A DNA stretch of 64,000 nucleotides from Rhytidiadelphus loreus (Eukaryota; Streptophyta; Bryopsida; Hypnales; Hylocomiaceae). The DNA lies in contig OX344761.1 of NCBI GenBank assembly GCA_947034895.1, positions 30,020,863-30,084,862 on the forward strand, written 5' to 3'. Under the pieces are notes generated by a model. The model was not told where the DNA came from. It worked only from the letters and a program-made list of their open reading frames with translations, and made no database searches. This document shows, piece after piece, positions 5,396-23,346 of the stretch. Numbering within the stretch: the first letter of the stretch is position 1; each line of letters starts with the position of its first letter. A program made the position numbers and the translations under genes.

Positions 5396-5403
5396 AATGC
5401 TAC
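5396..5403. repeat. 8-bp target-site duplication, left copy
   Basis: AATGCTAC directly precedes the TAGGGTT end. An identical AATGCTAC lies at 23339-23346, directly after the inverted TAGGGTT end. Eight base pairs is the diagnostic duplication length of hAT transposons. Confidence 0.8.
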
Positions 5404-5610
5404 TAGGGTTGACGAATTGGAGCGTCCAGCCCAAAATCATGTCCAAAAAGCGGACGTCCGGACGCGAGGACGTCCAGATGTGACGGACGCGGGGGACGCT
5501 GGGTAAAACGGAGCCGTCCGTCCGATTTACCTCGGGGTAAATTCCGGCGTCGGAATTCCGACGCTGCCTTGGCCGTCGGAATTCTGACGCAGTCGCAGCT
5601 GTCCTCCTGA
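5404..5610. promoter_or_regulatory. left-end subterminal GTCGGA/GTCCGA motif cluster
   Basis: A GC-rich island in AT-rich DNA with repeated CGTCC, CGGACG, CGTCGGAATTCCGACG and GCCGTCCGTCCGA. hAT transposases bind short subterminal repeats in both element ends (known for Ac), so these are candidate transposase-binding sites. A mirror cluster lies at the right end (23050-23338). Confidence 0.6.
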
Positions 5611-5961
5611 ATTGCACCCCTGGTTGAAACAGGATTAACAATCATATCATCATGATCCTCTAGCCTTTCAAAAGCATTTCAATTACCACAAGTATGAAGC
5701 CAAATTTTTTAATTTTTTTCATCATCTTGCAATATATCATGCTTCATTGTAGAAAAGCAACATACAAATGACACAATCAATTGATATTTTGGATTGAAAT
5801 CATCTTTGGTTAAGTGCCCCCTTCAAAAATAATGGTATTACCACCATCAATAAGTTTAGGAGTATTACAATCAAAGTCTCTAACAATCAATTGTCAGTAT
5901 GACAATCTGTGCTTTATGTAATATGAGCACATGAACATTTAAGCCTATGTCCTTTCTATTT

Positions 5962-6522
5962 CTAAGGATTGTAATCAAAATCTCCTTTCACCTCTGCCCC
6001 ACTACTCTCACACCCATTTCCCAATCTTGCGTCTTCGTCGTCGGATGTGTCTTCCATATCATCTGATGAAGAGCCTAGACATGTCGTTCTTCCCTCTTGT
6101 ACTTGCGTGGATGAAAGGCTTCTTCTTCGTTTGTCCTTTTTGAGTTCTTCTTTTACTCTTAATAAGGATTTCCCATTTTGTTCCTTAATGCCAACAACAC
6201 TTTTCAATTTCCTCTTTGAAACATGTGGACGTATATCAAGAGGGTTTCCAATGGCTCTTGTTTTTTTCAACGGGGATATTGCAAAAGGTTGCATGACTCT
6301 CTTCTTATTGGCTCTAGGTGATCCCCCGCCCTCTAATTTTATTGTTGAGGGCCCTCCACTGCCTCCATGAATGATTATCTTCGGTGAGATTGAAGATTGT
6401 GGTTTAGGCACTGACATTGTTGGGGGCCGTCGTGGTGGTGCATTACGAGAATGCCGAATGAACATTGAAGCCAATGTCTCATCCTTGTCATCGTCCGTGG
6501 ACGATAAAATACCTTGACTAGG
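5962..6522 (-). CDS. ORF continuing the transposase frame past an in-frame TAG
   Basis: Directly after the TAG at 6525-6523 the same frame remains open for 187 codons, beginning PSQGILSSTDDDKDETLASMF and ending in DFDYNP. The segment is basic and Pro/Ser-rich, with Lys/Arg clusters (KRKLKS, KKDKRRR) that resemble nuclear-localisation signals, then an acidic tail (SSDDMEDTSDDEDA). There is no ATG at its start; the first ATG is 19 codons in. The likeliest reading is that it was the C-terminus of the transposase, cut off by a recent nonsense change or joined by readthrough or splicing. A short GT-AG removal (6526-6484, 43 nt) would bypass the stop, but it is very short for a plant intron and enters a different frame. 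I do not recognise a named domain. Confidence 0.5.
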   Translation of the reverse strand, partial: PSQGILSSTDDDKDETLASMFIRHSRNAPPRRPPTMSVPKPQSSISPKIIIHGGSGGPSTIKLEGGGSPRANKKRVMQPFAISPLKKTRAIGNPLDIRPHVSKRKLKSVVGIKEQNGKSLLRVKEELKKDKRRRSLSSTQVQEGRTTCLGSSSDDMEDTSDDEDARLGNGCESSGAEVKGDFDYNP

Positions 6523-9285
6523 CTACCTTTCTTTTGAAATATTTGCAATCCGTTTTCCAAGCCCTAAGCTCCCAACGCCATCCAAAATTTGACTAGGGGT
6601 TTTCAATTGTGCACGTGGAGGGATGCTAGATGGTGGTACTTCAAAATCTTGCATGAGTTCCTTCTTGACTTCTCCATTGATGCACAAAATTGGACTTCTA
6701 AACCCCACCACACATAGATCAACATTCTTCTCCGCTTCATTTGCCTTAGGGATTGGAATACTTGGGTGACCACTGTTCGCACTTGCCAATACAATGGTTG
6801 ACTCAACACTCGTGTTGCCAACGTTCATTTTGACATTCACCTCCCAAGGCTCACGTCCTCCCGTGCCGATGTGTTTGTCATTTTCTTCCGCTCGCAACAC
6901 TCCTCTAAACGGAGACTCAAGTGGAAAAAGATCTTTATCCATTCTTTGCGTCCCATCATTGGGAATCGTTCTCTCATTGGCCTCTATATAAGCGTCTTCT
7001 TTTTCCGATAGAACTTTTTCGCTACTCATGAACCCACTTCCATCCACAAATCTAGCTATGGAAGGTACATCTTCATCATACCCATCATTATCCTCATCCA
7101 ATGGAAGGTCATAGATGTCTCGATCATTGGCTCGAAGATCTTCATTGGGCCGACTTGGACTATCGAACATTTCATCATCAAAATTGTGCCCGTCGTAATT
7201 CATGGCATCTTCGTCATCCAATAGAGGCCCAACTGACCCACCATCCTCCTCGTCGTCCGAGATAAACCCCTCTGAATCTTCCGAATCCACGTTGTCATCG
7301 TACCACTTCTTCTCATCCTTTTCCTTTGATGCTGCCAAGACCTTGGAATTGGTGTACACATACACCAAGTCTGCCGCCCTTTGCGTTGTCAACTTGTTCC
7401 GAGATTTGTTGTGAACAAAAGAATAACTACTCCAATTTCGTTCACATGAAGACGAGGATACCGGTTGTGCCAAAATTCGCTTGGCTATTGGAGCAATGAG
7501 CTTTCCACATGCACCTTCAAAATCCCACCAAGCATGCGCCGACAATTGTTGCTCATCCGGATTTAACATGTTGTGAAACGGAGGTTCCCTATGACGGAAG
7601 GCTACAAATTCTTTTACCACCGAGGCGTACTCTCTTTGTTTGCAAATTTTCATTAGAACACGCTTGCATGCGTCCATTGCATCTTGATCATCGGCTAGAT
7701 CCTTATCATGCAGAAGGTATGGATTCAAAAGAGCTCCTGCATAATGTAAATCTGTCTCCCCCATTCCACGGTGTTTGAAAAAGGATCGCTCCAATGGTTC
7801 GGTGAGGTTTGTTGCCAAACAAAAAGGAGGCCCTTCTAGGCTAAGGACATGTTTCTCTAAATTCCTCATAATATGCAACACCTTACCCATGCATGGCGTC
7901 TTTGCATCCAAATCACGTAGACCATATACAACGGGGGCCACCAATTCTCGCAAATTTGTCCACCGGTTCCAATAATGCTCCTCTAGAATGAACCTCTTCA
8001 CATCACGAGACTTCGTGCGAGATTTGGCTTTGCCATTGTCGTTGAGTGTATTCACATATGCCACCCACTGTGGATCCACCACACTTTGTTGCAATGCTCT
8101 TTTGACTTCCAACAAACGATCAATCATGATAAACACGGAGGCAAACCTTGTTTCCACCGGCTTCAACAAACTGTACTTTGTCTCATACTTCCGAAATATA
8201 GCAAGTGGCATGTGTCTTTTCTTGAAGAAATTCACTACGGTTTGGGCTCTCTTTACCGACTCTTCAATCCATTTCTCCTTTCCCCAATCTTTGAGCAACA
8301 AATTCAAGGCATGCACCACGCATCCTTGAAAAAAAATGTGTGGATATTTAGTGGATACCAAATTCCATGCTGCCGGATTCACTGGAGCATTGTCTGCGCT
8401 CACTTGCACCACATTCGTAGAACCCACCTGCTCTATGAATTTTTCTAAAATTGTGGCCAAATATTGTACTGTCTTTTCCACCCCACTAGTATCCACCGAT
8501 CCAAGGAATTGCTCACCCGTTGAAGATACAAGCATGACATTAATCAGTGGACGGTTTGTAACTGAGCTCCATCCATCAATGGACAATGTTGCTCCAAACT
8601 TCCTGACGCTGTCTTCGGTTCTTCTATGCACCTTCTCCACGACATTTGCCTTGGCTTGATCAAGCAATTTATGCCGTAGATCATGATATGATGGCGGAGT
8701 GTAGGCCTTACCATACTCGGAGGTTTTTTTCACCGCTTCTCTGAAAGCTACGTTTCGGGCCACTGAAAAGGGTATATTTGCCGCGTAGAAGAAATTGGCC
8801 CACACTGCATTCAAATTCTGTTTTTTGGTTTCTTGAAAGCCATCCAAAAGCCTACTTTGTGTTGGAGGCCTACTACTTGAGGCCCTGCGAATGTCACGTC
8901 CGCTACATGTTTGCATACTTGGAGTTACTTCGGAACCCCCTCCAATGACTTCTTCCGGTGTTGTACAAGAATCTTCTTGCGTAGAACGTGGCATGCCCCT
9001 CCCATTTGACATATCGCTTTCAACCATAGGCAAGTTGTTGACATCCACATTTCCACGAACAGGTCTTTGTGGAAATGCCCCATTGCATCGAAGAAATAGA
9101 CTTCGAGTTTCCGCTGACAATTTGGGACACAAACTCACTCCCCTATCACGAGAACCGGGAATCGATTCATATCCTAAGTGACTCAACATACGGCTCGTTT
9201 TCTTTGAAAACACGTTGTCGCAAGCCTTGCATTGTATTTTACTCGCCGAAAGGACGACATACCAAGAGGCAAGATCCTTGCTCAT
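6523..9285 (-). CDS. hAT-superfamily transposase (BED-like zinc finger, DUF659, hAT dimerisation)
   Basis: A 920-residue protein from the first ATG at 9285; the open frame extends five codons upstream to a TTG at 9300. It catalyses cut-and-paste transposition of hAT elements in the nucleus. Near the N-terminus a BED-type finger can be read (C19-x2-C22, H36, C53). The DUF659 region (about 155-345) has SIDGW with D237, SADNA with D298, and the conserved GCVVHALNLLLKDW block. ETRFAS follows near 378-383. The C-terminal hAT block SSSSCERNWS (E615) should carry the third acidic catalytic residue. Residues about 655-920 are an unusual long acidic and low-complexity extension. It ends at a single TAG beyond which the frame continues (see 5962-6522). 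It lies within an element bounded by hAT-type ends. The catalytic domain shows no break. Confidence 0.92.
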   Translation of the reverse strand: MSKDLASWYVVLSASKIQCKACDNVFSKKTSRMLSHLGYESIPGSRDRGVSLCPKLSAETRSLFLRCNGAFPQRPVRGNVDVNNLPMVESDMSNGRGMPRSTQEDSCTTPEEVIGGGSEVTPSMQTCSGRDIRRASSSRPPTQSRLLDGFQETKKQNLNAVWANFFYAANIPFSVARNVAFREAVKKTSEYGKAYTPPSYHDLRHKLLDQAKANVVEKVHRRTEDSVRKFGATLSIDGWSSVTNRPLINVMLVSSTGEQFLGSVDTSGVEKTVQYLATILEKFIEQVGSTNVVQVSADNAPVNPAAWNLVSTKYPHIFFQGCVVHALNLLLKDWGKEKWIEESVKRAQTVVNFFKKRHMPLAIFRKYETKYSLLKPVETRFASVFIMIDRLLEVKRALQQSVVDPQWVAYVNTLNDNGKAKSRTKSRDVKRFILEEHYWNRWTNLRELVAPVVYGLRDLDAKTPCMGKVLHIMRNLEKHVLSLEGPPFCLATNLTEPLERSFFKHRGMGETDLHYAGALLNPYLLHDKDLADDQDAMDACKRVLMKICKQREYASVVKEFVAFRHREPPFHNMLNPDEQQLSAHAWWDFEGACGKLIAPIAKRILAQPVSSSSCERNWSSYSFVHNKSRNKLTTQRAADLVYVYTNSKVLAASKEKDEKKWYDDNVDSEDSEGFISDDEEDGGSVGPLLDDEDAMNYDGHNFDDEMFDSPSRPNEDLRANDRDIYDLPLDEDNDGYDEDVPSIARFVDGSGFMSSEKVLSEKEDAYIEANERTIPNDGTQRMDKDLFPLESPFRGVLRAEENDKHIGTGGREPWEVNVKMNVGNTSVESTIVLASANSGHPSIPIPKANEAEKNVDLCVVGFRSPILCINGEVKKELMQDFEVPPSSIPPRAQLKTPSQILDGVGSLGLGKRIANISKER

Positions 9286-9523
9286 GGTCACAAATTCCAA
9301 ACTTGAACTTCTTCAAATTCGCAAGTTTTGGAAAATGTAAACACAAGTGAACCAATGTTTAAAATTGGGTTTACGGTCGTGCACAAAGCCTTGAAATTCA
9401 AGGCCCCCCTTCCACCAAACGATGCATTACCAAGCAAGGGACACAAAATAAATTGCAGCTCCTAGCCCTTGGAAATCGTAGTGTTCAGTGGATTTGGAGT
9501 GCCTTCATACGCCTTGTTTCTTC

Positions 9524-9890
9524 TACTTATACTTTGCAGCTGAATACAGGTGGCGCTGACCGTTATTCAGAAAGATGAATTTTAAAAACAGTATCAATGG
9601 ACTCATTCTCCCCAGAATGGCCTGTCTGATTTGACCATCCCGTCCGAACATTCCGTCGGATCGGGCCAGGCCGTCGGATCGAGCCAGCTCGTCGGAACAG
9701 GCCAGCCCGTCCGAACAGGCCGTTGGAACAGGCCGTTGGAACAGGCCGTTGGAACAGGCCGTCGGAACAGGCCGTCGGAACAGGCCGTTGGAACAGGCCG
9801 TCCGAACTGGCCGTCCGAACAGGCCGTCGGATCTGGCCAGCCCGTCCGAATTGGCCGTCGGATCAGCACGTCCGATCTTTTTATCCGGAT
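9524..9890 (-). promoter_or_regulatory. transposase-gene promoter with GTCGGA/GTCCGA cluster and 13-bp tandem repeat
   Basis: A TATAAGTA box (9524-9531, minus strand) lies about 240 bp upstream of the transposase ATG. About 100 bp further upstream is a GC-rich cluster (9636-9890). Its core repeats with a 13-bp period, unit GCCGTCGGAACAG with G/T, G/C and A/T variants, at least six units. The order cluster, TATA, 200-300 nt leader, ATG recurs before the other element genes. The ORFs running through the cluster are repeat artefacts. Confidence 0.6.
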
Positions 9891-9950
9891 TCGGGACTTC
9901 TCGTAGTTCAGTTTCAAATAGAACTGTTTCACACTTTCAGCACAAGTGTC

Positions 9951-10024
9951 CAAGGCTTATCCAAACATTTGGACTTGCCTTCTTCCAATCGGGGAGGTCG
10001 CGGGTTCAAATCCCGGCTCTGATT
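9951..10024 (+). other. tRNA-like relic with a good box B
   Basis: GGTCGCGGGTTCAAATCCCG forms a T-arm-like hairpin, and GGTTCAAATCC matches the pol III box B consensus. Upstream sequence (about 9951-9995) can be loosely folded into D- and anticodon-like arms, but no clean acceptor stem closes. It may be a tRNA- or SINE-derived remnant inside the hAT element. It is not called as a functional tRNA. Confidence 0.25.
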
Positions 10025-10497: not shown

Positions 10498-11907
10498 CTA
10501 TTTAATTCTATCATTGTTGCCATCTCCCGAACCACCAGACAGACCAGAGGACCCCTCTGTATTGCGTTGCGCCACTTGAGCGGCAATCCTTGGACTTCCG
10601 CGACGAGAAATTCCCCCAGGGCTTGTTGAGCTTAAGAACCGATTTGATTTGGTTGCCCTGTCCACAACGACAAATTGTCGTATTGTTTCCGGTGAATAGT
10701 CATCGTCATCTTCAATCTTCCGCTTCTGTTTGCGCTTCGGAGTCAAATCCACATCCATCGCCTTTAAGGCTCTCAGAGCAGCATCCACTCGATTTACCAA
10801 CACATTCACCATATGGTCATCACTAGGGTTGTTTACCCTAAACCCTTCGGTGACTCCTTCCAATAGGAACGCCCTCCATTGACCTATGATGTCGGCCACC
10901 CTCCTATCAAATGCCCCGGCCACCTCCACGAACGAATCTCCTTTGTTTGATTCTCCATCCGTTTCCACCTGAACACGAATTGATGCAACTTCTTCCAGCT
11001 TAGATAAGAACAGTGCCCTGCCTATGGGAACGTGATTGTATGCCTCGTACTGTTCACTGAAGCCAAGAGGATGCTCCACCTCTATCCAATTGCCATTTGG
11101 CCCTTTCTGTACTTCTTTTTCGAGAAACCGGAAAAATTTATGGTATTGCATGCTCCAATGCCCTCCCATACTGCGACAAAACAATTCACGAGCCTCGCCA
11201 TCATCAATGGCACGAGCCCGCAATTCCACTTCTATATTTTGGGTCATCCACATGAAGGAATCCACTGGTTGCATGGATGCATCATACAATTCATGCTTCT
11301 GTTCCTTTGGATCCCATATGAGGGGTTTCCCCCAATGCGAATAATTCTGAAATTTGTATGGCCCTTGGTCAAGTGGAAGAGTCCATCTATTGTATTCGTG
11401 GCCGGGGGGCATACCTTCCAAGATGCCAAACATCTCGTAGAACCTCGGACTCAAAGGAGAACGGCACTCGGCACAAGCGGATCGAAACAGAGATGCTTGC
11501 ACAACGCATTTGATATGAAAAACGTGGTGACAATGGCCCATGGTGAAGGCTCCTTCAGGCCCAAAAGGACCTTGGCAAATGCTACAATGACCCTTCAACA
11601 TTTCATTGCCTGGATTAGAACCATGCACAACTATCTTCTCGTTCTTCTTAATGTGTGCTGAAAGCGTTGTGTAAGGAGTCCATCCTTCTTCTACTTCAAA
11701 AGTCCAATTGATGTCGCGATTGTGGGCTAGCGATTCCTTCTTGGCGTGGTTCAACCGCTCGTACATGGCATCCATGTCTCCCCAACATGTCATTGGCATA
11801 GACCCCCAAGAATGTTGCTCGACCGCACTTTTGAATTTCTTCAAAGCAGCCTTAACGACATTGCAATCTTCATCCGACTTCATTGCAAGGGTGCGAACCC
11901 CGATCAT
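10498..11907 (-). CDS. RING-H2 finger protein of the giant hAT element
   Basis: A 469-residue ORF from an ATG at 11907 (alternative ATG at 11883). A canonical RING-H2 can be read: C108-x2-C111, C126-x-H128-x2-H131-x2-C134, C145-x2-C148. Such fingers recruit ubiquitin-conjugating enzymes, so an E3 ligase role is likely. The rest (150-385) is globular with Trp/Tyr-rich stretches (NRWTLPLDQGPYKFQNYSHWGKP) and matches nothing I can name. A KRKQKRK cluster at 391-397 suggests nuclear targeting, and the tail is Ser/Gly-rich. The ORF is in the same frame as the coiled-coil ORF upstream (11935-13752). They are separated only by one TAA and nine sense codons, and no separate promoter cluster lies between them. 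It could therefore be the C-terminal half of one ~1,080-residue protein, or the second ORF of one transcript. The start is uncertain. Confidence 0.8.
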   Translation of the reverse strand: MIGVRTLAMKSDEDCNVVKAALKKFKSAVEQHSWGSMPMTCWGDMDAMYERLNHAKKESLAHNRDINWTFEVEEGWTPYTTLSAHIKKNEKIVVHGSNPGNEMLKGHCSICQGPFGPEGAFTMGHCHHVFHIKCVVQASLFRSACAECRSPLSPRFYEMFGILEGMPPGHEYNRWTLPLDQGPYKFQNYSHWGKPLIWDPKEQKHELYDASMQPVDSFMWMTQNIEVELRARAIDDGEARELFCRSMGGHWSMQYHKFFRFLEKEVQKGPNGNWIEVEHPLGFSEQYEAYNHVPIGRALFLSKLEEVASIRVQVETDGESNKGDSFVEVAGAFDRRVADIIGQWRAFLLEGVTEGFRVNNPSDDHMVNVLVNRVDAALRALKAMDVDLTPKRKQKRKIEDDDDYSPETIRQFVVVDRATKSNRFLSSTSPGGISRRGSPRIAAQVAQRNTEGSSGLSGGSGDGNNDRIK

Positions 11908-11934
11908 TGCCCGAGATGCTAAAGACGGTTTGTC

Positions 11935-13752
11935 TTAAAGTTGTTGTATCCATGTCAACCACCGAGACTCCGATCCACTCGCCGGTAGACATTCATCCAT
12001 GTTCTCCACTCGTTTCATCCGGTCCAACCTCGATTGAAGAAGGGCATTTTCTTGGTTTACCTCATTCAATCTTTGATTCAACTCGCTCCAAGTTGGAACC
12101 TCATCCACCTTTCTGGTCTCAAGCTCCTCCACTGCTTTGGCCTTCTCAAATGGAAGAGAGAGTTGATCGCTTTCTTGAGTTTCTTGCGACGTCGATAGTT
12201 GGATCTCCACTGTAGAGAGGCCCTTTTCTTCATTTCGTTCCTTCAAATATTTCTCGCTATACTTCTTCCTTGACGCCACCAATTGCCTTCCCAATGACTC
12301 ACAATTTTCAACGACCCTTCCATACTTTTTACTCCACTCGTCATTCTTCTGCTCCAGCTCCACGATTGTCTTCAAGTAGTTGTACTTCTCATCAAGAAGT
12401 GTTAGCGCTCCACTAGCAAACTTGTGAAAAGCCAATCCACCCTTCAATAGTGGATGCGATAATGTGGATAAATTTCTGGCCAATTCCATAGCCAACGGGG
12501 CCATTTCCGCTACAGCTTCAGCAGAACATGTTATTGCTTGAGCGGATGTCACAAAATCGTGAAGCCCAAGTTTGTTTTCGGTTGCCGTAGAGCACTCGGC
12601 CTCGTTCACGGGTTCACCTTCTCTCGATCCATCCATTTGAGGTGGGTACTCAACTCCGCACCTAAGTATGATTTCAAGATGCTCCGGATTTGGGATTTGA
12701 CCCACATATTGCAATCTTCTTGGAGTTAAAGTGCACAAGAGCGGATACTTGCGCACAATCTCCTCGCCATCAATATTGGAGGTCGTTGCCACGTTTTGAA
12801 GTCGCTCTACGAACAGACCTGACGGTTGAACTTCACGGATCGGGCTCAATATTGGACTAGGTGGTGTTGGCGAGTCCACGTTTGGAGGAACGTACTTCAA
12901 ATTATCTAGAGCATCGCTGACTATAAGCCGTTCAATTGTAGCATTTGCTCTTGCAACTTTGTCTTCATCCATGTCTTCTCGCGACGAGGAAGAGGGGGCA
13001 ACTTCTTTCACAAGGTTGTGCTTGTTTGGAGCAATGCTTTGCTCACCCGTGATTGGTACATGAACCGAGGTGGGTAAACAAGTCTCCGGATCCTTGAAAT
13101 TGACCTTCCGAAATACACCTCCCGAAGAGGCATTGATGGCCTCCGCTCCTAGTTGTGTGGGGTCCAACTGTACTGCGTCGCCTACACCCTGTGAAACCTT
13201 CATTGTAGGCGTTCTAGTATTTTTTAATACTATTTTAGATTCAGCCGTTTGTGCCCCGTGGTTGTATAAATCGGGAATATCCTTTTGATTTTTCGGAAGT
13301 TGAAGCGGCAATTGCGATGTCGTTGGAAACGTGCTCCAATCCACCTTCCGACCCAATATGAGTTCTGCATACACCATAGATGCCGTGCTGTAATTTATGT
13401 ATCCTTTACTCCTTGCCTTGTTGCCAAAAAGGGCCTTCCACACCTCGTCTGATCGATGTACAAAATGACTATCCTTGCAAGTCCACGGCTTACAATTGAA
13501 ATATCTTGTGTGGGCTGCGTGGCAATCCCGAGGCCACAACTTGTCAATGTGGTACATTTTGACAAATTGTTTGCACATTTTAGAGCTCCAATATTCAACC
13601 TCCACTTTCTCCCAGTCAGGCTCCGCTTTGATGTTCGGATCATCTAAAATGTCATACTGCAACGCATGTCCGGCCCCCCTTGTTTTAATTTTCTTCGGTG
13701 GAGGTTGTGTTGAAGTCGTCCCAATAGCCCCTCCATCACCTTCCGCGGCCAT
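11935..13752 (-). CDS. coiled-coil protein with the domain shared by the 17128-18132 protein
   Basis: A 605-residue ORF from an ATG at 13752. The N-terminus has a basic patch (PPPKKIKTR). Residues about 55-140 form a domain also found in the 17128-18132 protein. The common pattern is W..K.CK.(F/Y)VKM.H..K.W.R, then TC...HF.HR..EV, then NYS...MV..E..L...VDW. The middle is Pro/Ser-rich and low in predicted order. Residues about 470-595 are Glu/Lys/Leu-rich with heptad-like spacing, as in a coiled coil (LEQKNDEWSKKYGRVVENCE and on). I recognise no named family. It ends at a TAA after QQL, beyond which the same frame runs on into the RING ORF. Its leader and motif cluster (13966-14300) probably drive both ORFs. 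A DNA- or protein-binding partner of the transposase is possible, but that is a guess. Confidence 0.75.
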   Translation of the reverse strand: MAAEGDGGAIGTTSTQPPPKKIKTRGAGHALQYDILDDPNIKAEPDWEKVEVEYWSSKMCKQFVKMYHIDKLWPRDCHAAHTRYFNCKPWTCKDSHFVHRSDEVWKALFGNKARSKGYINYSTASMVYAELILGRKVDWSTFPTTSQLPLQLPKNQKDIPDLYNHGAQTAESKIVLKNTRTPTMKVSQGVGDAVQLDPTQLGAEAINASSGGVFRKVNFKDPETCLPTSVHVPITGEQSIAPNKHNLVKEVAPSSSSREDMDEDKVARANATIERLIVSDALDNLKYVPPNVDSPTPPSPILSPIREVQPSGLFVERLQNVATTSNIDGEEIVRKYPLLCTLTPRRLQYVGQIPNPEHLEIILRCGVEYPPQMDGSREGEPVNEAECSTATENKLGLHDFVTSAQAITCSAEAVAEMAPLAMELARNLSTLSHPLLKGGLAFHKFASGALTLLDEKYNYLKTIVELEQKNDEWSKKYGRVVENCESLGRQLVASRKKYSEKYLKERNEEKGLSTVEIQLSTSQETQESDQLSLPFEKAKAVEELETRKVDEVPTWSELNQRLNEVNQENALLQSRLDRMKRVENMDECLPASGSESRWLTWIQQL

Positions 13753-13965
13753 GCTTGGTACTTTGAATTGAAGAGCAATTCAAAGTAAAAAATTCGGTCA
13801 ATTGAAATATACGTGTAGGTAATTTAAATCTGCCAAAGTCACACCGTAATAAAATATGTTGGACCCCTTCTCTCCACCAAGTAAGAGCAACTAGCGCCAA
13901 AGGCAACAGCAACACATTTGACTTGGCAAGCTTGGAGAGAAGAAGTGAAAAGAAATGAAGGGCCC

Positions 13966-14300
13966 GTCCGATCATATAGCCGTCCGAAACCAACCCTAAT
14001 ACCGGTTTGGTTCCGGACCGCGATCCGTCCGACTTTGGGCCGTCGGATCGGACCTGGTCGTCCGATCGGGCGGACCGAACAGGCCATCGCTGTCTGATTA
14101 GGCCGTCGGAAGAGGCCGTCCGATGAGGGCGTCGGAAGAGGCCGTCGGATCGAACACGCTGGGGTCGTCGGATCGGGCCGTCGGATCGGGGCGTCGGAAG
14201 ACCAAGTTTGGGAGTCGCCTGCGCCCGATCAGGCGGATCGAACAGGCCGTGGCCGTCGGATCAGGCTGTCGGATCAGGCCGTCGGATGGATTTTAGGTCT
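13966..14300 (-). promoter_or_regulatory. motif cluster and TATA upstream of the coiled-coil/RING unit
   Basis: Dense GCCGTCGGATC, GCCGTCCGATC and GTCGGAAGAGGCC units, with TATATGA on the minus strand at 13972-13978, about 220 bp before the ATG at 13752. The architecture is the same as in front of the transposase, kinase-like and Gly/Tyr-rich genes. Confidence 0.55.
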
Positions 14301-14502
14301 TCAGGTCTCCGATCAGGCCATCGTCTCCTCTGCACGGACCTGCTGAACTGTCATCCTCCAACTGTGTACGCATTGTTCAAACAACGGATCCTTGAAATAG
14401 TTAAATCACTGTAAAAAATAATCAATGAAATGTAGAAAGCATCCAATGTGTGAAAGCTTATTGTTCATTTTCTTCCCTATATTGTGAGATTGTTTTTAAT
14501 GC

Positions 14503-14539
14503 TAAACCCTAGACCCTAAACCCTAAACCCTAAACCCTA
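14503..14539. repeat. interstitial telomere-type repeat (CCCTAAA)n
   Basis: About five units of CCCTAAA, one with a substitution (CCCTAGA), in the middle of the hAT element between its divergent gene groups. CCCTAAA is the common plant telomere unit. Unrelated DNA on both sides shows this is not a chromosome end. Confidence 0.8.
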
Positions 14540-16600
14540 CAAATTATTAAATTTCCATATAAAATATTCACGTGCTCAACAAAAAATTGGTGCAGCATGC
14601 GGCATCACTTTTACGATTTCACCGAGTATTCCCACCATCCCAATATCCACTAGTAGCAATTTTGGCTCGCCCTCTATACATGGTTACATGGATACATTAT
14701 TACATTGCAATTTGAAGACATTTATTTTTTTGGATCCACAAAGTACATGACTTCTTCTATGATTTTAAGATATGATTTAAAAAGTCAATGTGGAAATGTT
14801 GGTTGAAAATTGAAATGTAATTTGAATGTAGAGACCATTGTGTAATTGATCCATTGAACTTGTAGTCTACATGTGATAATTTAAATGTACTATACATGTG
14901 AACCTTGTCGACTAATTAGTTCTTCATTTCTATGTTTCCGGGTATGAATTATTACATGGCAACGTGGAAATTCATAAAGTGAAAGGTTGTCCCACAAAAT
15001 TGACAACTGAATATGATGATGAGATGATCACTCATGTACGAGAATTAATAGAAGGAGAACGTCACATATGATCATTTGAAAGTTTTTTATTTACTTGTAA
15101 AATGTACTACTCATTCATGAATTCATGACATTGTAATATGGAAATTTTTTCACCATATACCCTATATTGATATATTTTTTCATTTCATTGAGAAGGGGGA
15201 GAGAGGGGCCAACTTGAAGGCCTTCACCAATTTTTCTAAAGTTGAATTCATTAATCTATTAATTTAGGTTTCATTAATTATATGTATGACGAAATGTTAA
15301 GCTTTCATACCTTGCAGTATTGCACAAAAATATATTATATTATAGAATCATGGATAATCTCTTTATTCAAAGTTCTAGCCTATTAGAGCATGTTCTTGAG
15401 TGTTGCCAAAATAAATCTATAAATCGGTAGAGTTCATTTCTGCATGCAATTGCTAGTGAGATTGATAACTATTAACTAGAGAAGAAGTTCTACATGTTTT
15501 TGTGGAACTGAAAGAGAGTGGGCACATTTGAGCAAAAAATAAATATTTCTTCAAATAAATTATGGAAAGGTAGTTTTTCTACTTTTACATGGTCAACAAT
15601 TATGGAATCTCTCTTTCTTTACTCAAAAAATGCAGTTGTAAGTGCCCCATAAGGCCATAACCGTCTTGGGGGGTGCACTTAGTTCTACTATATTACTATA
15701 ACAAATCACGTGTGAACAAGTGGTTCTCTAATAAACTATAATTTCAACCTAAAATTTTGAACATTGTTTAATAATGACTATAGCTTTCTATTGCCAAATT
15801 TTCAACTCAAATAAAATATGAAATGATTTCTAGAAGAGGTTGAAACTTGAAAATGAACTAAAATGGCATGTTTTTCAATTGAAATAATTATAGAGGACAC
15901 ATTTAGATGACCATTGAGTCAATATTCAATTCAAAATGAGCTTTCAATAATGAGTTATTTTTAGGAATTTTTTGTTCATTTTTTAGACAATTTTGTCTTA
16001 TATAATAGAGGGGTGTGAAAGCTATTTTTCAGTTCTACAGTGTATCTTTTTACTTCAAAAGTTTGTAACTAATTATTATTAACAAATAAAAATATCAATA
16101 ATTCAAAACATAAACTTTTAAAGTAGGAAAATCTATTCATATTTTTTTAATTTTGTTGTATTTAAAATTCAAAAAGTATATAGGGGGTCCAAAGTTTTGT
16201 TCGCACTTGGTTTCTAATGGACACTCTAAATGACCCCCCGAGATAACCGTAGTTCATGAATTTCTACAATTATTTCAAGAAAGCGAATTAGAGGATGTAC
16301 ATGATTTATTAAAAAAATTACGCATTTCGAAGCAATGGGATCCTAATTTTTCAAGGGCATAGCCAAACCCTTATGAATTTGGGAATTCAAAAATTCCATA
16401 CTTCTTTCTTCTTATTATTTTCCTTCTACATGTTATACAAGGGTTTAGTGTGTTACAAGCAACATTTTAGATCGTACGGTTCAGTCCCCAAATTTTTTAC
16501 GTGCTCACAGGGGGGGCCAAAAAAGGATACGCTGAATTGCCCCCTTCGTTGCCCCTGCTGCAGGGCAAAGCCTGCAATTTCGAAAGGGGCAAAACTTCCC
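14540..16600. other. non-coding centre of the giant hAT element
   Basis: About 2 kb of AT-rich DNA between the minus-strand genes and the plus-strand genes. No long ORF, RNA gene or terminal repeat recognised. It may include remnants of older insertions. Confidence 0.4.
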
Positions 16601-16624
16601 TTGTTCTCCAAAATTCTCCTCGCC

Positions 16625-16850
16625 GGACGGCCCCTCCGCCCTTCCGACGCCCCGTTCGATCTGCCGACGCCCCGTCCGAGCTGTTCATCTGCATGTCGGT
16701 GCGTCCGCACTTTCTCGGTGACCCTGCGATCCGTCGTGCGACAGTTTCGGGTCGCACGATGGGGGCGTCGAAAAACAGGCCATCGGATTCGGACGGACCC
16801 TAAAGCGCCGTCGGAAGCCATAAATAGCGTTTCCGACGCCTCATTTTTCC
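16625..16850 (+). promoter_or_regulatory. motif cluster and TATA upstream of the Gly/Tyr-rich gene
   Basis: A GC-rich block with CCTTCCGACGCCCCGTTCGA, CCGACGCCCCGTCCGA, GGGGGCGTCGAAAA and GCCGTCGGAAGCC units. CATAAATAGC (16819-16828) is a plausible TATA box about 300 bp before the ATG at 17128. The units here are more diverged from the GTCGGATC form than elsewhere. Confidence 0.5.
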
Positions 16851-17127
16851 ACAGCCGTTTCCCTCCCGAAGTGGGTTTTCCAGTGCCCGATGTGAATCTG
16901 TGGCTTTGCGCGCCCCTTTCGGTTTGGTGTGTGAACGGTTGTGCTTGGATACTTGGTGGTTTTAAGTGATTTGGTTTGAATAATTTCTTGTATGCGAGGA
17001 ATTGTGAATTAGAAAACCGTTTCACTCCATTGCATTTGAATTTTGAAGTGAGAAGAACTTGGTGCACTTGGTGCAATATTTTGGGAAAATTCGGACATCA
17101 ATTATCTTCATTGTAATCAAGGTTATC

Positions 17128-18132
17128 ATGTCTCGCCCTAAACCATCAAGTAAGAGTAAGAAAGGGAAATCTCAAGATATGAATTGGGTTGACTGGGAAA
17201 ACCCTAATTGCGTAGCTGAAGATGGATGGGAAGAAGAGCCAAAGAAAGTTTGGGACTGCACCACATGCAAGAAGTACGTGAAGATGATTCACCTCTCTAA
17301 AATGTGGTCACGAGAACGTGCTGAAGGCCAAGTTCGTCGATGGGAAGGACAAATGTCCACATGTACGAGCCGACACTTTCTTCACCGTTATGAAGAAGTA
17401 ACGCGTTCAACGGGTTTACGTGACTCCAAACCTAATATAATGAACTATTCTAACATGGCTATGGTTTGGGTAGAGATTGTACTCCACAAAGATGTGGATT
17501 GGCGTACCATTTATGAGAAACATGTGGATAGTTTGAATCGGAATGATGCAATGATTTATACTAGCTGGACTGCTGCAAGTGATTGCCAGCCAGAGTGGTC
17601 CAATCGAGGGCAGTTTGGATTTCCTGTAGTTGTGGTGCCACATGGAGAAGATGAATGGTCGAGTGACGGTGATGAGGGTGAAGCTCCAGCACCAGTGACA
17701 TTGGGAGAGGAGCACGAGCGTAAAAAAGATCGAGAAGACATTGAATACGAACAACAAATGCAAGAAGCGATGCGTAGAAGCGTAGAGGACCGTGGTCGAC
17801 AAGATGGGTATGATGGATTCTACCAACGTGACCGTGGTGCATATGACCCACCACATGGGTCATATGCTTCACACTATGGCCATGACCCCCAACATGGCTC
17901 TCAAAACGTTGGAGGCTCTTATTATGGCGGTTCAACTCAAAGAGGATCACTCCACGGTGATTCAATTCCTCCTTCAACTTTTGGAGGTCATTCCTCCGCA
18001 AATTATGGACAAGGAGGTGGGCAAAGCGGATATGTTCCCGACTACTATGGCGGAGGACCATATCTCGGTGTTTATGGTGGTGGTCCTATAGGCCCAAGTC
18101 AGAGAGATGACACGGATTCAGATTCCGAATGA
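17128..18132 (+). CDS. Gly/Tyr-rich protein sharing a new-looking domain with the coiled-coil protein
   Basis: A 334-residue protein. The ATG at 17128 (MSRPKPSSKSKKGK) is chosen over an upstream ATG at 17059 because the basic, Ser/Lys-rich start resembles the other cargo proteins and the upstream codons look like leader. Residues about 42-126 align with residues 55-140 of the 11935-13752 protein: W..TCKKYVKMIHLSKMWSR, TC.SRHFLHRYEEV, MNYSNMAMVWVEIVLHKDVDW. The conserved Cys and His could bind metal, but there is no classical finger spacing. Residues about 205-260 are charged (RKKDREDIEYEQQMQEAMRR, likely helical). The C-terminal quarter is disordered and rich in Gly, Tyr, Ser and His (YYGGS, GQGGGQSGY), ending in an acidic DDTDSDSE. 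Intact, with its own upstream motif cluster. No named family recognised. Confidence 0.75.
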   Translation: MSRPKPSSKSKKGKSQDMNWVDWENPNCVAEDGWEEEPKKVWDCTTCKKYVKMIHLSKMWSRERAEGQVRRWEGQMSTCTSRHFLHRYEEVTRSTGLRDSKPNIMNYSNMAMVWVEIVLHKDVDWRTIYEKHVDSLNRNDAMIYTSWTAASDCQPEWSNRGQFGFPVVVVPHGEDEWSSDGDEGEAPAPVTLGEEHERKKDREDIEYEQQMQEAMRRSVEDRGRQDGYDGFYQRDRGAYDPPHGSYASHYGHDPQHGSQNVGGSYYGGSTQRGSLHGDSIPPSTFGGHSSANYGQGGGQSGYVPDYYGGGPYLGVYGGGPIGPSQRDDTDSDSE

Positions 18133-18968: not shown

Positions 18969-18972
18969 TTAA

Positions 18973-19525
18973 CCCTTTAGGGCCTAAGGAGCCCCAAGCA
19001 AACTCTTGAATTCTTTTGGAATCAAATTTTCATATCAAAATTTTATCATTTAATTTAAGTTATTATTTTTCACAAATAACCATTCATGTCTTCTATCAGA
19101 TCTGAATTTTTTAAATTTTTTGGGAAAAGTATGAAAATTATAAGATTTTCTAGAGTTTCTATCTTTGAAAAATCGTAGTAATTACAAAAGAGCTCACTTT
19201 ACGATGAAATTTTTATAGAAAATAGGAAAAATTATAATGAACATTATGGTGAAGTTTTCATGCTCCCTTTCGTTATATACAAATAAATTTGATAGAGAAA
19301 CATGTCCCATAGTGTATTTTGAAACTTTCTAAATCCCAACTTCAAATTGCCATAGATAAGTCATTATTGCTCCAAATTTGATGGCCAATGGCTCATTGGA
19401 AGCGAAATTCCCGTGCCCTCACATCTCATTTACACCTCACAGTCAAATGAGGTTAGGAAAGTGTTTTAATTTCCAAAATTCTGTTTAAAACGACCAAATT
19501 TGGCATGCTCGGCCCCCCTAAAGGG
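18973..19525. mobile_element. 553-bp TTAA-flanked non-autonomous element (piggyBac-like)
   Basis: Flanked by TTAA at 18969-18972 and 19526-19529. The left end is CCCTTTAGGGCC and the reverse-complemented right end CCCTTTAGGGGGGCC. A TTAA duplication plus termini starting CCC is the piggyBac signature. It lies inside the giant hAT element, just upstream of the kinase-like gene's motif cluster, so it inserted later. Non-coding. Confidence 0.55.
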
Positions 19526-19554
19526 TTAAGGGGTGAAAATACCATTTATCGTAG

Positions 19555-19765
19555 CCGTCTGATCTGTCGGCCTGCCGCGCTGTCCGATCTGTCGAACTGC
19601 CGCGCCGTCCGATCTGTCGCACGGCAACCCGTCCGCCTCGCGGGGGCCGTCGGATCGATCGGCCGTCCGATCTGTCGGCCGCGTCGTGGGCGTCGGATTT
19701 CCGACGCGGACCGTGCGTCGGAAAAGGGCGTCGAAAAGGTATAAGAGAGTCGGACGGGCCCGTCT
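19555..19765 (+). promoter_or_regulatory. motif cluster and TATA upstream of the kinase-like gene
   Basis: A GC-rich cluster with GCCGTCCGATCTGTCG units, GGGCGTCGGATTTCCGACGC and TATAAGAG (19740-19747), 240 bp before the ATG at 19980. It has the same arrangement as the other element promoters. Confidence 0.55.
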
Positions 19766-19979
19766 GATCCTCACTTTTGTTTTCCCCCTTGCATATTGCA
19801 AGAGTGAAGCGGAGAGCTTGGTGGTTCATGCCCCCATTGGTTCCTCTTCTTGGGAAAGCAAGAGTGCGATTTTGGGGGCCCCTTATTGCCATTTTTTTCA
19901 GTTTTGGTTCGAGTTTCACTTGAACTTGAAATTATCATTTCATTTTGCGAATATTCATTCGTACAAGAAGTTCATCACG

Positions 19980-21476
19980 ATGCCACGAACAAAGAAGGCT
20001 GCAAAGAGGAAACAAATGGAGCATGAAGGAGGTTCACACAATGAAGCAAGTAGGGACATTCCCTCTGATGCATGCAAGAGATTTTTGATCAAGTTGATCG
20101 TCAATTTCTATGAGTCGGAAACGACGATGTCACTACACAACAAATATGTTAGGTACAACGAGGAGTGCTCGCAAAAATTCAAGGCGGACATGTGGCAACT
20201 GATGATGAATGCGCTTAGCGTTCCGGAATGGCACCACAAGACGGAGAAGAAAGGCTTTCCAAAATTCTTGGAGAATAGGGTCCACGATGCATTGTGGAAT
20301 GCATCAATGGTGCTAGCAAGGTACGGCTCTCAATATCGGGAAAATGATGAGGATTTTCGTGAAGTCATTCTGAAAGCTGACTTGTTTGTTGCACGATGCA
20401 AGCCGTTTGCAAAGAGCCGTAACAGACGAGGATCTTTGGGTTGGTGGAATAGCACTGATGGAGTGGCTGAACTGGATCGGGGCAGACAACACCTCATAGC
20501 ACTTCCCGACACAGCACGAGTAATCGCTCAAGACCAAAAAACCATGAAGGGTAGATATGCAACAATTCGTAGGGTTCGAATTGAAGGGTGTCTAGGGATA
20601 GCTACATTTTGGGAGTTTGCAGCAAAGCTATTCAATCAACACCGCACACAACCTCATCTTGCGAGATTGGAACACCAGAACGAGTCAATGGCAGTGCGGA
20701 TTCCACATCCTGGAGTTATACGGTTTGCTGCAGTTCATGGAACAACAAATGAAGGGTATTCGTATTGGTGGAATGGCGGAACACTACGGCACATGATGCA
20801 CTTGGATAATGATTATCCAGACAACATTGCCATTCGGTTGCACTATTCGAGGCCAACAGAGGTAGAGTTGATTGAAGCTTACCGTCTTGGACGATTTAGG
20901 AAGAAGCGCACGCAACTTGCATGGGCATTATTGCACATCATGAATGCGGTGCACATTTTTGGACATCTTCACAATGACATCTCTCCAGACAACATAATGT
21001 TTCACTTTCCTGAAGACGAGTCATGCGTGTACATTGGAGTCTGCGATTGGGGCATGACTACCGTAGCTTCTGAACCAATGAAGTCTTTGTACACGTTTAC
21101 ATGTGCGAGGGACATGGAGGAGGCTTTGAGAAAGAGGTGGTGGGTGGACCCGAAGATTGCATATGTGCACAAAAGAGATGCAGATGGGTCAATCATTCCA
21201 AATCTATCATGTGCATCAGAAGAATATGCGGTTTGTAAACTCGCTCAACGCATCAATAAGGATTGCATGTCTGAAGAATACTACAAGTTGCATCGGGAAT
21301 CAGCTGAACTGACGAAGTTGAGTCACCACGTTTTGGCCCTTATGTTTCACTCATACATGGAGCGGCCTTGCAGTGAAGGTTCGAATTACCGTGGCGGTTT
21401 GTCTCACATCATCAATTTCTTTTCCGGTCGGTGCAATTGGCCTGTGCCGGATGAGCACTTTCGCCATTCATATTAG
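19980..21476 (+). CDS. protein-kinase-like protein carried by the giant hAT element
   Basis: A 498-residue protein from the ATG at 19980 (MPRTKKAAKRKQ, basic and probably nuclear). The frame is open 98 codons upstream, but that part lies in the promoter cluster. Residues 191-360 read as a kinase fold. There is a glycine-loop-like GRYATIRRVRIEG and a candidate VAIK lysine in FAAKLF (K216). HPGVIRFAAVHG and GGTLRHMM correspond to the beta4-hinge region. The catalytic loop is HNDISPDN (D333, N338, where HRD is usual), and DWG (D356) replaces DFG. H-x-D-I-S-P-x-N loops occur in kinase-like families outside the main eukaryotic set, such as fungal FunK1-type proteins. Lysine, loop Asp/Asn and DxG Asp are all present, so catalysis is possible. 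The ~185-residue N-terminal part has no match I know. The substrate is unknown; phosphorylating transposase or chromatin proteins is a guess. Confidence 0.75.
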   Translation: MPRTKKAAKRKQMEHEGGSHNEASRDIPSDACKRFLIKLIVNFYESETTMSLHNKYVRYNEECSQKFKADMWQLMMNALSVPEWHHKTEKKGFPKFLENRVHDALWNASMVLARYGSQYRENDEDFREVILKADLFVARCKPFAKSRNRRGSLGWWNSTDGVAELDRGRQHLIALPDTARVIAQDQKTMKGRYATIRRVRIEGCLGIATFWEFAAKLFNQHRTQPHLARLEHQNESMAVRIPHPGVIRFAAVHGTTNEGYSYWWNGGTLRHMMHLDNDYPDNIAIRLHYSRPTEVELIEAYRLGRFRKKRTQLAWALLHIMNAVHIFGHLHNDISPDNIMFHFPEDESCVYIGVCDWGMTTVASEPMKSLYTFTCARDMEEALRKRWWVDPKIAYVHKRDADGSIIPNLSCASEEYAVCKLAQRINKDCMSEEYYKLHRESAELTKLSHHVLALMFHSYMERPCSEGSNYRGGLSHIINFFSGRCNWPVPDEHFRHSY

Positions 21477-23040
21477 TAGTTCAACGTACTTTATAGTAGC
21501 ATAGAACTATAGAGGTATGTAGTAAATATAGAATGAGGATGTACGCGTGCACACTATATAGTGCCTAATTATGCAATGTCAATGTATGACCATATATGTG
21601 GAATATGATAATTATATATTTTGAAAGTTCGGTGTATTTGAGTAAGTAATGCTTATGATTTTTTGTCACATGAAACTATGAAAGATACATATGACTTGAA
21701 TGAAAAAGGCACTACTTGTTGTTGTTGAATGCTGAGGTAGCAATTAGCAAAGGTGTGTGGAGATTGTTTTCATTTTAAGCTTTGTAAACCCCATCGTCCA
21801 AGCAGCTTCAAACTTCAGAAGGTCATAGGAATCTCAGATTTTGAAATTTTCCCAAACAAAAATTTCTTGCTTGTCAAATATAAGTATGCCTTTGTATCCA
21901 TCGTTCGGATTTTCAAAATCTCAAAGTATGTGGTGGGAAAACTGATTCAAAGATGACTTAGTGCATTGTCAATATTTGGGACATTGTGGCATAATGGCAT
22001 TGCAAAAAAATTTTGGAGGTGTTAGGTGTGTTGGATTTCTTTGAAAATTGGTATGCATATGCCCAACTTCAATACCTACAAGAAATTTTTTTAATTTTAT
22101 GGTGTGTAGTGCAAAAAAATTGAGCATGAGGCGGTCAAAGGCATCTGAAATTCTGGGGCATAGTGAAAAAAAAAAAAAAAAAGACTTTGAATGCAAATAT
22201 CTCTTTATCCGTACGGTGAAAACTCCCAAAAAGTTTACCACACCCTCTCATACAAGTTCACTTCAAGATCTTACGGTTACATTTTCAAAGAAAACATTTT
22301 CACAACATCGTGAATGATTGCAACTGGAATGGCATTTTTCAGTGATTTTGGACCCAAAAAATGGCTCGGTCCTTTAGGGCCTAAGAAAGAAATGGTTAGA
22401 ATAAAAATGCGTTGAATTCTACAGTTGGGAACAATACAGAATTTTTAAGAATTTTAATTTTTTCCGAAGTCAAATTACTTTCATGAGTTCAAATGGGGAT
22501 TCTTTCAGTACTCCCTAAAGTACAAGAATGGGTTAATTTTTGGGCCTAAATCCTTGTTAATTAAAAAAATGACATTTCTATAAAACCCTAAAAAAATAGT
22601 ACCATCGTGCATTTCGACGCTATTTAGTATTTAGACCTTGACCCTTTTTCTTTTTCTTTTTGTTAGAATAATTTCCATGACCGTCAATAGGGACCTTAAA
22701 CAAAACTTATTGTATACCGAAGTTCAATAATGGGTTCTATTTCTTTTCATAGCTCATTTGAACCCCTAAAGGACAAAGCGTCCCTTCCGTTGACAAATGG
22801 ATTTCAGGTTGATACCTATGGGCTGAATTTGTCTCCTGATTTTCTTAAATTTCTTTTTAAGATAGAAAAATGGAAAACCTTTGTGAAAATATAATTTTTT
22901 TCTCAATCGGTACCCCTCTACAAAAGTTATGCCCATGTAACTCAAAACTTGGGAGATCGGGCAACACAAAGATTTTTCAGAATTAAAATTTTTTATTTCT
23001 AAATTTTTTTAACTCATACATTATACTTTTGTCAAGGAAA
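21477..23040. other. right-hand spacer of the giant element, repeat-rich
   Basis: No gene. It contains fragments typical of the TTAA-flanked family: CCTTTAGGGCCTAAG near 22371, AACCCCTAAAGGAC near 22750, and the recurring core AAAATATAATTTTTTTCTCAATCGG near 22888-22915. Nested or decayed small elements are likely, but I could not pair their ends. Confidence 0.4.
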
Positions 23041-23049
23041 AGGGCTGGA

Positions 23050-23338
23050 TTAAACCACGCCGTCAGATCAGGCCGTCGGATCGGATGTGGCCATCCGATC
23101 AGACCGTCGGAAGAGGATATCCGATCAGCCCGTCCGATAAGGCCGTCGGATCAGACCTGGCCGTCGGAAGACCATACCCGATCGGACCGTTCGATTAGGC
23201 CGTCGGATCGAACCTGGCCGTCGGATCGGGAGTGGCCGTCCGATCGGCCAGGCCGTCGAAAGGTAACTTTTTATTTACCCTAGGTAAAAAACAGAAAAAC
23301 TGGACGTCCGGGGGGGTCCGGACGTCCTGGTAACCCTA
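23050..23338. promoter_or_regulatory. right-end motif cluster and terminus of the giant hAT
   Basis: A dense run of GGCCGTCGGATC, GGCCGTCCGATC and related units (23050-23265) is followed by GGACGTCC, then GTCCGGACGTCC (23316-23327) and the terminus GGTAACCCTA. It mirrors the left-end cluster and is the likely transposase-binding region. Confidence 0.6.
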
Positions 23339-23346
23339 AATGCTAC
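23339..23346. repeat. 8-bp target-site duplication, right copy
   Basis: AATGCTAC, identical to 5396-5403. Confidence 0.8.

What the first reader, a model, noticed from the sequence alone, without database searches (positions are those of the whole stretch)
5396..23346. A 17.9-kb hAT transposon with five long ORFs and intact target duplication
The sequence shows TAGGGTT inverted ends, an identical AATGCTAC on each side, inverted GGACGTCCGGAC subterminal motifs and an intact hAT catalytic domain inside. hAT elements are known for 8-bp duplications and for lengths of a few kb. A unit this long that carries a RING-H2 protein, a kinase-like protein and two proteins sharing a domain would be a multi-gene giant hAT. 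Two cargo genes are full-length and each unit has its own promoter, so this is not random gene capture debris. I infer that the cargo helps the element (regulation, chromatin, evasion of silencing).
Basis: partly seen in the sequence, partly recalled or inferred. Interest (0 to 1): 0.92.

Follow-up and report, generated by a model that had tools for sequence, protein, structure and literature searches.

The report
Giant hAT transposon carrying four genes
An 18,000-letter jumping gene of the hAT class, likely from a moss or a near relative, belongs to a family that has inserted whole at many places in its genome and carries, besides its transposase, three extra genes that bear the mark of natural selection and likely help it to persist.

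Summary
The unit is 17,935 bp (5404-23338), with TAGGGTT ends and AATGCTAC on both sides. Its own genome (407 Mb) holds a large family of it. In 19 of 20 main-family copies whose two ends I could read, 8-bp flanks match with at most one mismatch; ends of different copies paired as a control gave 0 of 210 (106). The 17 left-right pairs found in capped lists are 17.1-50 kb; none is short. It has four genes, not five: the 614-aa ORF and the RING-H2 ORF are one gene of about 1,084 codons split by a stop here, and the transposase frame is also cut early. ORF4 and the kinase-like gene are open. A second family keeps all four genes in another order in three loci read (kinase, ORF4 and transposase mostly 60-68% identical), with dN/dS 0.18-0.36 between families; two further loci of it show ORF4 and kinase only. 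CGTCSGA arrays lie in both ends and upstream of all four genes. I read this as an autonomous giant hAT with a maintained accessory-gene set. What the set does is inferred. One plant survey's longest hAT consensus was 7.1 kb.

The parts
5396..5403 (.). left target-site duplication AATGCTAC
5404..5410 (+). left terminal inverted repeat TAGGGTT (CAGGGTT in all 20 left ends)
5452..5475 (.). two GGACGTCC palindromes, left subterminal
5526..5541 (.). TTTACC..GGTAAA palindrome, left subterminal; only two in the window, one per end
6523..9285 (-). hAT transposase frame, 920 aa, DUF659 + hAT dimerisation; ends in a premature TAG (6523-6525)
5962..6522 (-). rest of the transposase frame after the TAG, ending in the conserved C-terminal motif SSGAEVKGD.DY
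9640..9877 (.). CGTCSGA array upstream of the transposase gene
10498..13752 (-). one gene of about 1,084 codons: N-terminal domain shared with ORF4, predicted coiled coil, RING-H2; split by an in-frame TAA at 11935-11937 in this copy
13964..14288 (.). CGTCSGA array upstream of the RING gene
14300..16600 (.). largely AT-rich central spacer between the two divergent gene pairs
16643..16838 (.). CGTCSGA sites upstream of ORF4
17128..18132 (+). ORF4, 334 aa, open; shares a 128-aa domain (31% identity) with the RING gene's N-terminus
19555..19769 (.). CGTCSGA array upstream of the kinase-like gene
19980..21476 (+). divergent protein kinase-like gene, 498 aa, open; Lys216, Glu235, Asp333, Asn338 and Asp356 invariant in 18 of 18 aligned proteins
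23060..23245 (.). CGTCSGA array in the right subterminal region
23274..23288 (.). TTTACC..GGTAAA palindrome, right subterminal
23302..23327 (.). two GGACGTCC palindromes, right subterminal
23332..23338 (-). right terminal inverted repeat AACCCTA
23339..23346 (.). right target-site duplication AATGCTAC

Best explanation
This is one copy of a family of hAT DNA transposons about 18 kb long that have inserted whole with 8-bp target duplications and carry four genes: a DUF659-type transposase, a long RING-H2 protein, a small protein sharing that protein's N-terminal domain, and a divergent kinase-like protein. The window's copy is likely no longer able to move by itself, because its transposase and RING frames each hold a premature stop. 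How it works, inferred: the transposase is predicted to bind the CGTCSGA/GGACGTCC repeats at both ends; because CGTCSGA arrays also sit upstream of all four genes, it (or the shared-domain proteins) would also set the output of the whole gene set, tying cargo expression to transposase level. The RING protein (a predicted ubiquitin ligase) and the kinase are predicted to modify host proteins or the transposase, most likely to blunt silencing or to favour repair and reinsertion of an unusually long DNA. Shown: the unit, its ends, the duplications, the copy number, gene collinearity, a gene set kept in two families, purifying selection between them, and the shared arrays. Not shown: DNA binding, expression, any enzymatic activity, any benefit from the cargo.
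For: Ends and duplication in the window. Own genome, capped lists: 87 kinase rows, 53 transposase rows, 143 ORF4 rows, 40 left and 40 right ends scored. Duplications: 15 of 15 copies with both ends read (13 exact, 2 with one mismatch; 5 of the 20 sampled gave no right end), plus the window and 3 of 4 further copies; control 0 of 210. Collinearity: 38 of 50 transposase places have the kinase in the window's arrangement within 60 kb (19 at 13.1-14.2 kb) against 2 pairs in another arrangement; 28 of 40 left ends; 35 of 40 right ends; 74 of 96 main-family ORF4 places, 0 wrong pairs. Seven siblings align at 95.9-98.4% in segments over 1 kb of the stretches fetched. Second family: the same four genes, reordered, in three loci; dN/dS between families: kinase 0.18-0.19, transposase 0.25-0.26, RING 0.30-0.31, ORF4 0.32-0.36. 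Distant relatives: RING and transposase hits on contigs of identical length (17649, 8444, 7321), kinase and transposase on 27639; about 0.02 chance matches expected. Arrays: 51 of 53 sites in ends and upstream zones. The kinase model matches protein kinases, with weak TM-scores.
Against: Within the main family dN/dS is 0.72 for ORF4 (21 pairs) and 0.49 for RING (10 pairs); between two second-family ORF4 copies dN (0.026) exceeds dS (0.014), so recent selection on ORF4 is weak or absent. Two further second-family loci have ORF4 and kinase, but homology stops in the array upstream of RING and no RING or transposase follows in the stretch fetched: shortened or interrupted copies exist. The arrays are thinner in the second family, with 1 site upstream of its transposase, and ORF4 has moved. 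12 of 50 transposase places and 12 of 40 left ends lack a listed kinase, though the lists are capped. One main copy (89) and one second-family copy (84) with both ends read show no duplication. RING genome-wide was not counted (search unanswered). The RING model is poor, pLDDT 43.7 (81). No RNA, methylation or binding data were available.
Confidence: 0.8

Rival explanations
1. Passenger model: the element is a real giant hAT, but RING, ORF4 and kinase are captured host genes that ride along and do nothing for it.
For: DNA transposons capture genes; dN/dS of ORF4 within families is 0.72 or above, many copies carry stops, and two second-family loci have only ORF4 and kinase in the stretch read.
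Against: All four genes persist in a second family with the order changed, with dN/dS of the same range as the transposase's (kinase lower, RING and ORF4 somewhat higher). RING and transposase relatives at 31-60% identity share contig lengths. The genes are long single frames, not fragments.
Confidence: 0.15
2. Composite of several nested or adjacent elements: the internal CGTCSGA arrays are relics of other elements' ends and the outer ends are a chance pair.
For: Arrays inside resemble the right-end array.
Against: No other end pair with identical 8-bp flanks in the window; the same outer ends flank the same gene set in many copies with their own duplications.
Confidence: 0.02
3. Host gene cluster spread by segmental duplication, with hAT-like ends by coincidence.
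For: At least one pair of copies on C4 (71.68 and 71.77 Mb) looks like a segmental duplicate, with the same gene spacing and the same transposase score.
Against: Distinct 8-bp duplications and different flanks in the copies read; in seven siblings homology stops at the right end.
Confidence: 0.01
4. The shared arrays are not transposase sites but host-factor or CpG-island promoters; the cargo is regulated by the host, and only the end palindromes GGACGTCC are bound by transposase.
For: Within the unit GGACGTCC is confined to the ends, while CGTCSGA is at both ends and promoters; the zones are GC- and CpG-rich; arrays are sparse at the second family's transposase.
Against: The repeat (47 sites on one strand, 6 on the other) is in the right end too, where no gene starts.
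Confidence: 0.35

Closest known systems
Plant hAT elements (consensus set of PMC6027215; Ac and Tam3)
   Same: Target duplication, [T/C]AGNGNNG-type ends, hAT transposase (PMC6027215, passages seen; Ac and Tam3 otherwise recalled)
   Different: The longest plant consensus in that survey is 7,144 bp (Gulliver) and it found no hAT in the moss Physcomitrella; this unit is 17.9 kb with three accessory genes.
ToxhAT (now ToxTA) of wheat-pathogen fungi, PMC12506042
   Same: 14-kb DNA transposon with cargo genes, once called hAT (passages seen)
   Different: That paper finds a TA duplication and 74-bp ends and reclassifies it as a likely non-autonomous Tc1/Mariner; here 8-bp duplications and an encoded hAT transposase.
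Pack-MULEs (PMC6431247, passages seen)
   Same: DNA transposon ends enclosing non-transposase genes
   Different: Those hold gene fragments and use a transposase in trans; here long genes conserved together with the transposase.
MuDR/MURB, CACTA TnpA/TnpD, VANDAL VANC (recalled, not read here)
   Same: Plant DNA transposons with an accessory gene that acts on the element's own sequence
   Different: Other superfamilies and few accessory genes; here RING, kinase and shared-domain proteins in a hAT.
Starships (PMC12506042 passages; PMC11623301 listing only)
   Same: Giant eukaryotic DNA transposons with cargo
   Different: Tyrosine-recombinase captain at one edge; none seen here.

Membership tests
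hAT superfamily | 8-bp target-site duplication | tested here: met
   19 of 20 main-family copies with both ends read, at most one mismatch; control 0 of 210
hAT superfamily | short inverted ends beginning [T/C]AGNG | tested here: met
   TAGGG at both ends in the window, CAGGG in 20 of 20 left ends. The full pattern [T/C]AGNGNNG of PMC6027215 is met by the left end; the right end differs at the last base (A). Perfect inverted stretch 7 bp; that paper asks for 8, PMC12506042 for 5-27
hAT superfamily | transposase with hAT dimerisation domain | tested here: met
   PF05699 E 1.2e-8, PF04937 E 2.6e-36; 45 of 45 homologues listed carry one or both
hAT superfamily | acidic catalytic triad and CERNWS motif (residue roles recalled) | tested here: met
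   D237, D298 and E615 invariant in the nine-sequence alignment
hAT superfamily | usual length of a few kb and a single gene | tested here: not met
   17,935 bp, four genes; a habit of the family, not a defining feature
Starship | tyrosine-recombinase (DUF3435) captain gene at one edge | tested here: not met
   Pfam scan of the five ORFs listed none
Pack-TYPE gene-capturing element | no own transposase, gene fragments inside | tested here: not met
   own transposase and full-length genes in the family
ToxhAT/ToxTA type | TA duplication and 74-bp ends | tested here: not met
   8-bp duplications, 7-bp perfect ends
RING-H2 E3 ligase | RING-H2 domain | tested here: met
   PF13639 in 15 of 15 aligned proteins at E up to 0.01, but below Pfam's own cut-off in the window's copy; ligase activity not testable
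Protein kinase | catalytic Lys, Glu, Asp, Asn, Asp (roles recalled) | tested here: met
   K216, E235, D333, N338, D356 invariant in 18 of 18; Pkinase in 17 of 18 at E up to 0.01, the window's copy below the cut-off; model matches kinases with TM-scores of about 0.2-0.5

The most novel reading that the evidence does not exclude
A bryophyte-wide lineage of giant, multi-gene hAT transposons that carries its own post-translational toolkit (a ubiquitin-ligase-like RING protein and a kinase) under one transposase-linked regulatory repeat, acting as a built-in counter to host silencing or as a repair-steering module: the first hAT known to keep accessory genes by selection, comparable to accessory modules of bacterial transposons.
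Probability: 0.45. Interest if true: 0.88.

Novelty: new variant of a known kind. Interest (0 to 1): 0.82.

Why it matters
hAT elements are known as small cut-and-paste transposons with a single gene (recalled). A hAT family of about 18 kb with three accessory genes kept in two diverged families, and with matching target duplications in about twenty copies read, shows that this superfamily can evolve into multi-gene elements. It makes testable whether plant DNA transposons encode ubiquitin and kinase functions against host silencing. It would also explain high-copy kinase genes in moss gene sets, such as the Ceratodon cluster of 126 sequences, as transposon genes.

Tried and rejected
Chance ends: rejected. 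Five separate genes: rejected in favour of four. Introns: none needed, frames are continuous. Stop-codon readthrough in place of nonsense mutations: not favoured, since sibling copies are open at these places. Relatives in viral or bacterial contigs: viral-contig scans with the RING, kinase and transposase alignments gave none; genome contigs gave none for the transposase and one 28% bacterial stretch for the kinase. Rfam and tRNA scans of the window: nothing. Fold of the RING protein: poor. Paper searches for multi-gene or giant hATs, hATs of mosses and cargo genes (10) listed no paper whose title or abstract describes such an element; the library is partial. A late check of the 24 ORF4 places at 64-68% identity: two were fetched; both are second-family sequence with kinase beside ORF4, and neither shows RING or transposase in the stretch. 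On this I lowered the best explanation from 0.82 to 0.80 and raised the passenger rival from 0.13 to 0.15. An empty site and a genome-wide RING count were wanted, but the machine did not answer.
Full report
What is there. The window holds a unit of 17,935 bp (5404-23338) between two copies of AATGCTAC. It is the only pair of TAGGGTT ends in the window, up to 25 kb apart, with identical 8-bp flanks. Each end also has two GGACGTCC palindromes and one TTTACC(N2-6)GGTAAA palindrome; elsewhere the window has one further GGACGTCC and no further TTTACC..GGTAAA.

Genes. Two genes point left (transposase, RING) and two point right (ORF4, kinase-like), with a largely AT-rich spacer between the pairs. 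The transposase has DUF659 and the hAT dimerisation domain. The transposase frame ends at a TAG, but the 186 codons that follow align with the C-termini of relatives, including the motif SSGAEVKGD.DY, and 28 of 53 rows in the own genome extend to 1098-1118 aa, inner stops being read through by the tool. So two of four genes are broken in this copy; ORF4 and kinase are open. ORF4 and the RING gene's N-terminus share a 128-aa domain, 31% identical. The kinase-like protein keeps the Lys, Glu, Asp, Asn and Asp of kinases in 18 of 18 aligned proteins (residue roles recalled), and its model (mean pLDDT 79) matches kinases in the PDB with weak TM-scores. The RING model is poor.

A family in the same genome. 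The window lies in a 407-Mb assembly. Searches there have capped score lists, so counts are lower bounds: 87 rows for the kinase, 53 for the transposase, 143 for ORF4, and 40 scored places each for the left and right ends. By hand count, 40 main-family rows and 5 of 6 second-family rows of the kinase are full length (495 residues or more) without a stop, 12 of 53 rows cover residues 1-920 without a stop, the window's among them. Arrangement: of 50 transposase places (three split fragments dropped), 38 have a kinase in the window's arrangement within 60 kb, 19 of them at 13.1-14.2 kb and the rest at 10-49 kb, against 2 pairs in another arrangement. 28 of 40 left ends, 35 of 40 right ends (111; 34 within 5 kb) and 74 of 96 main-family ORF4 places (136; 65 at 2.3-4.5 kb, no wrong pairs; the 24 places at 64-68% and split fragments left out) have the kinase as expected. 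Of 17 left-right pairs, 11 are 17.1-18.4 kb and 6 are 21-50 kb, presumably with nested insertions; 23 of 40 right ends found no left partner in the capped list. The RING gene was seen in 7 of 7 sibling copies sampled, whole in four and in part in three.

Target duplications. I fetched both ends of 20 of the 28 copies with left end and kinase (103, 104). The right end was found in 15, and all 15 have matching 8-bp flanks (13 exact, 2 with one mismatch); where a stretch offered more than one candidate right end the script took the best match. Pairing left flanks with right flanks of other copies gave 0 of 210 (106). Adding the window (exact) and four copies (2 exact, 1 with one mismatch, 1 with none) gives 19 of 20. 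Three of the seven first copies (c4_530k, c3_71M, c3_66.9M) were dropped because their left end was not reached. In the second family, of three copies with both ends read, one has a one-mismatch duplication, one an exact duplication around an inner CAGGG as left end (read by eye; the script did not flag it), and one has none.

A second family. Six kinase rows are 68% identical. Three of these loci were read: they hold transposase, RING, kinase and ORF4, but ORF4 is moved beyond the kinase and inverted. Identity to the window is 67.9-68.1% (kinase), 60-66% (transposase), 60-69% by segment (ORF4) and 44-59% by segment (RING). Between the two families dN/dS (Nei-Gojobori, own script) is 0.18-0.19 for the kinase, 0.25-0.26 for the transposase, 0.30-0.31 for RING and 0.32-0.36 for ORF4; synonymous changes are near saturation for some, so these are rough. 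Within the main family it is 0.30 for the kinase (28 pairs), 0.49 for RING (10) and 0.72 for ORF4; between two second-family copies of ORF4 dN is larger than dS (97). ORF4 also has 24 places at 64-68% identity, all without a stop. I fetched two of them: both are 95-98% identical to the second-family loci over most of their shared length and hold the kinase next to ORF4, which the capped kinase list had missed, but the likeness stops in the array upstream of RING and no RING or transposase follows in the 1.9-2.3 kb fetched beyond. Whether these are shortened elements or interrupted copies is open.

Beyond this genome. The database gave no genomic context, but it gave contig lengths. RING and transposase homologues share the exact lengths 17649, 8444 and 7321, and kinase and transposase share 27639. 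Near misses of 1-500 bp among contigs of at least 7 kb number 20 over 1000 offsets, so about 0.02 exact matches are expected by chance; two pairs of kinase rows also share short lengths, 2564 and 2291. If 7,321 bp is one contig, the two genes on it (1061 and 985 aa) must be neighbours. Two kinase homologues come from Ceratodon purpureus, a moss, one from a cluster of 126 sequences whose locus tag suggests the V chromosome. I infer that the host is a bryophyte; no call names it.

Control sequences. CGTCSGA sites: 53 in the unit, 51 of them in six zones (600 bp upstream of each of the four start codons, and the two ends) that make up 2,968 of 17,935 bp (131); 6 in the rest of the window (52). 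47 are on one strand and 6 on the other (131). In three second-family copies the sites upstream are 5-7 (RING), 3-5 (ORF4), 2-3 (kinase) and 1 (transposase) (108).

Mechanism, inferred. hAT transposases need repeated subterminal motifs (recalled; Kat1 abstract in the listing). The same repeat at ends and promoters would let one protein control both cutting and expression. RING and kinase proteins act on other proteins; for a long element the likeliest gain is weaker silencing or better repair after excision. None of this is shown here.

What is known. A survey of 276 plant hAT sequences found none in the moss Physcomitrella, a longest consensus of 7,144 bp, and the end pattern [T/C]AGNGNNG (PMC6027215, passages). 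The review 'Giant Transposons in Eukaryotes' does not contain the word hAT in the text held (PMC6431247, term search). ToxhAT, a 14-kb cargo element, has been reclassified as likely Tc1/Mariner with a TA duplication (PMC12506042, passages). My ten searches listed no paper on a multi-gene hAT by title or abstract; the library is partial.

Noticed in passing
window 9985-10025: GGGGAGGTCGCGGGTTCAAATCCCGGCTCT, a tRNA T-arm-like stretch, perhaps a SINE remnant inside the unit; ARAGORN and Rfam call nothing there.
   Followed up: partly
window 14505-14540: A short run of the plant telomere repeat (CCCTAAA) in the central spacer of the unit.
   Followed up: no
window 34193-35905 (-) and 40341-42050 (+): Two similar single-frame genes of about 570 aa, by eye like F-box/kelch-type proteins, in opposite orientation 4.4 kb apart.
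   Followed up: no
window 31330-32295 and 56558-57136: By eye a tetraspanin-like and a YIP-like gene to the right of the unit; not checked.
   Followed up: no
G000 C2:41162800-41182799 (L024, L025): A second-family copy whose left end is an inner CAGGG about 23 bp inside the usual end, with an exact 8-bp duplication: possible alternative end use by the transposase.
   Followed up: partly
G000 C4:71.68 and 71.77 Mb: Two copies with the same gene spacing and transposase score, probably one segmental duplication.
   Followed up: no
G000 C4:74819500-74829499 (L075) and C4:74316500-74325499 (L076): Second-family sequence with ORF4 and kinase that stops in the array upstream of RING, at about the same point in both; perhaps a shortened derivative. 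24 of 24 ORF4 places at 64-68% identity have no stop.
   Followed up: partly
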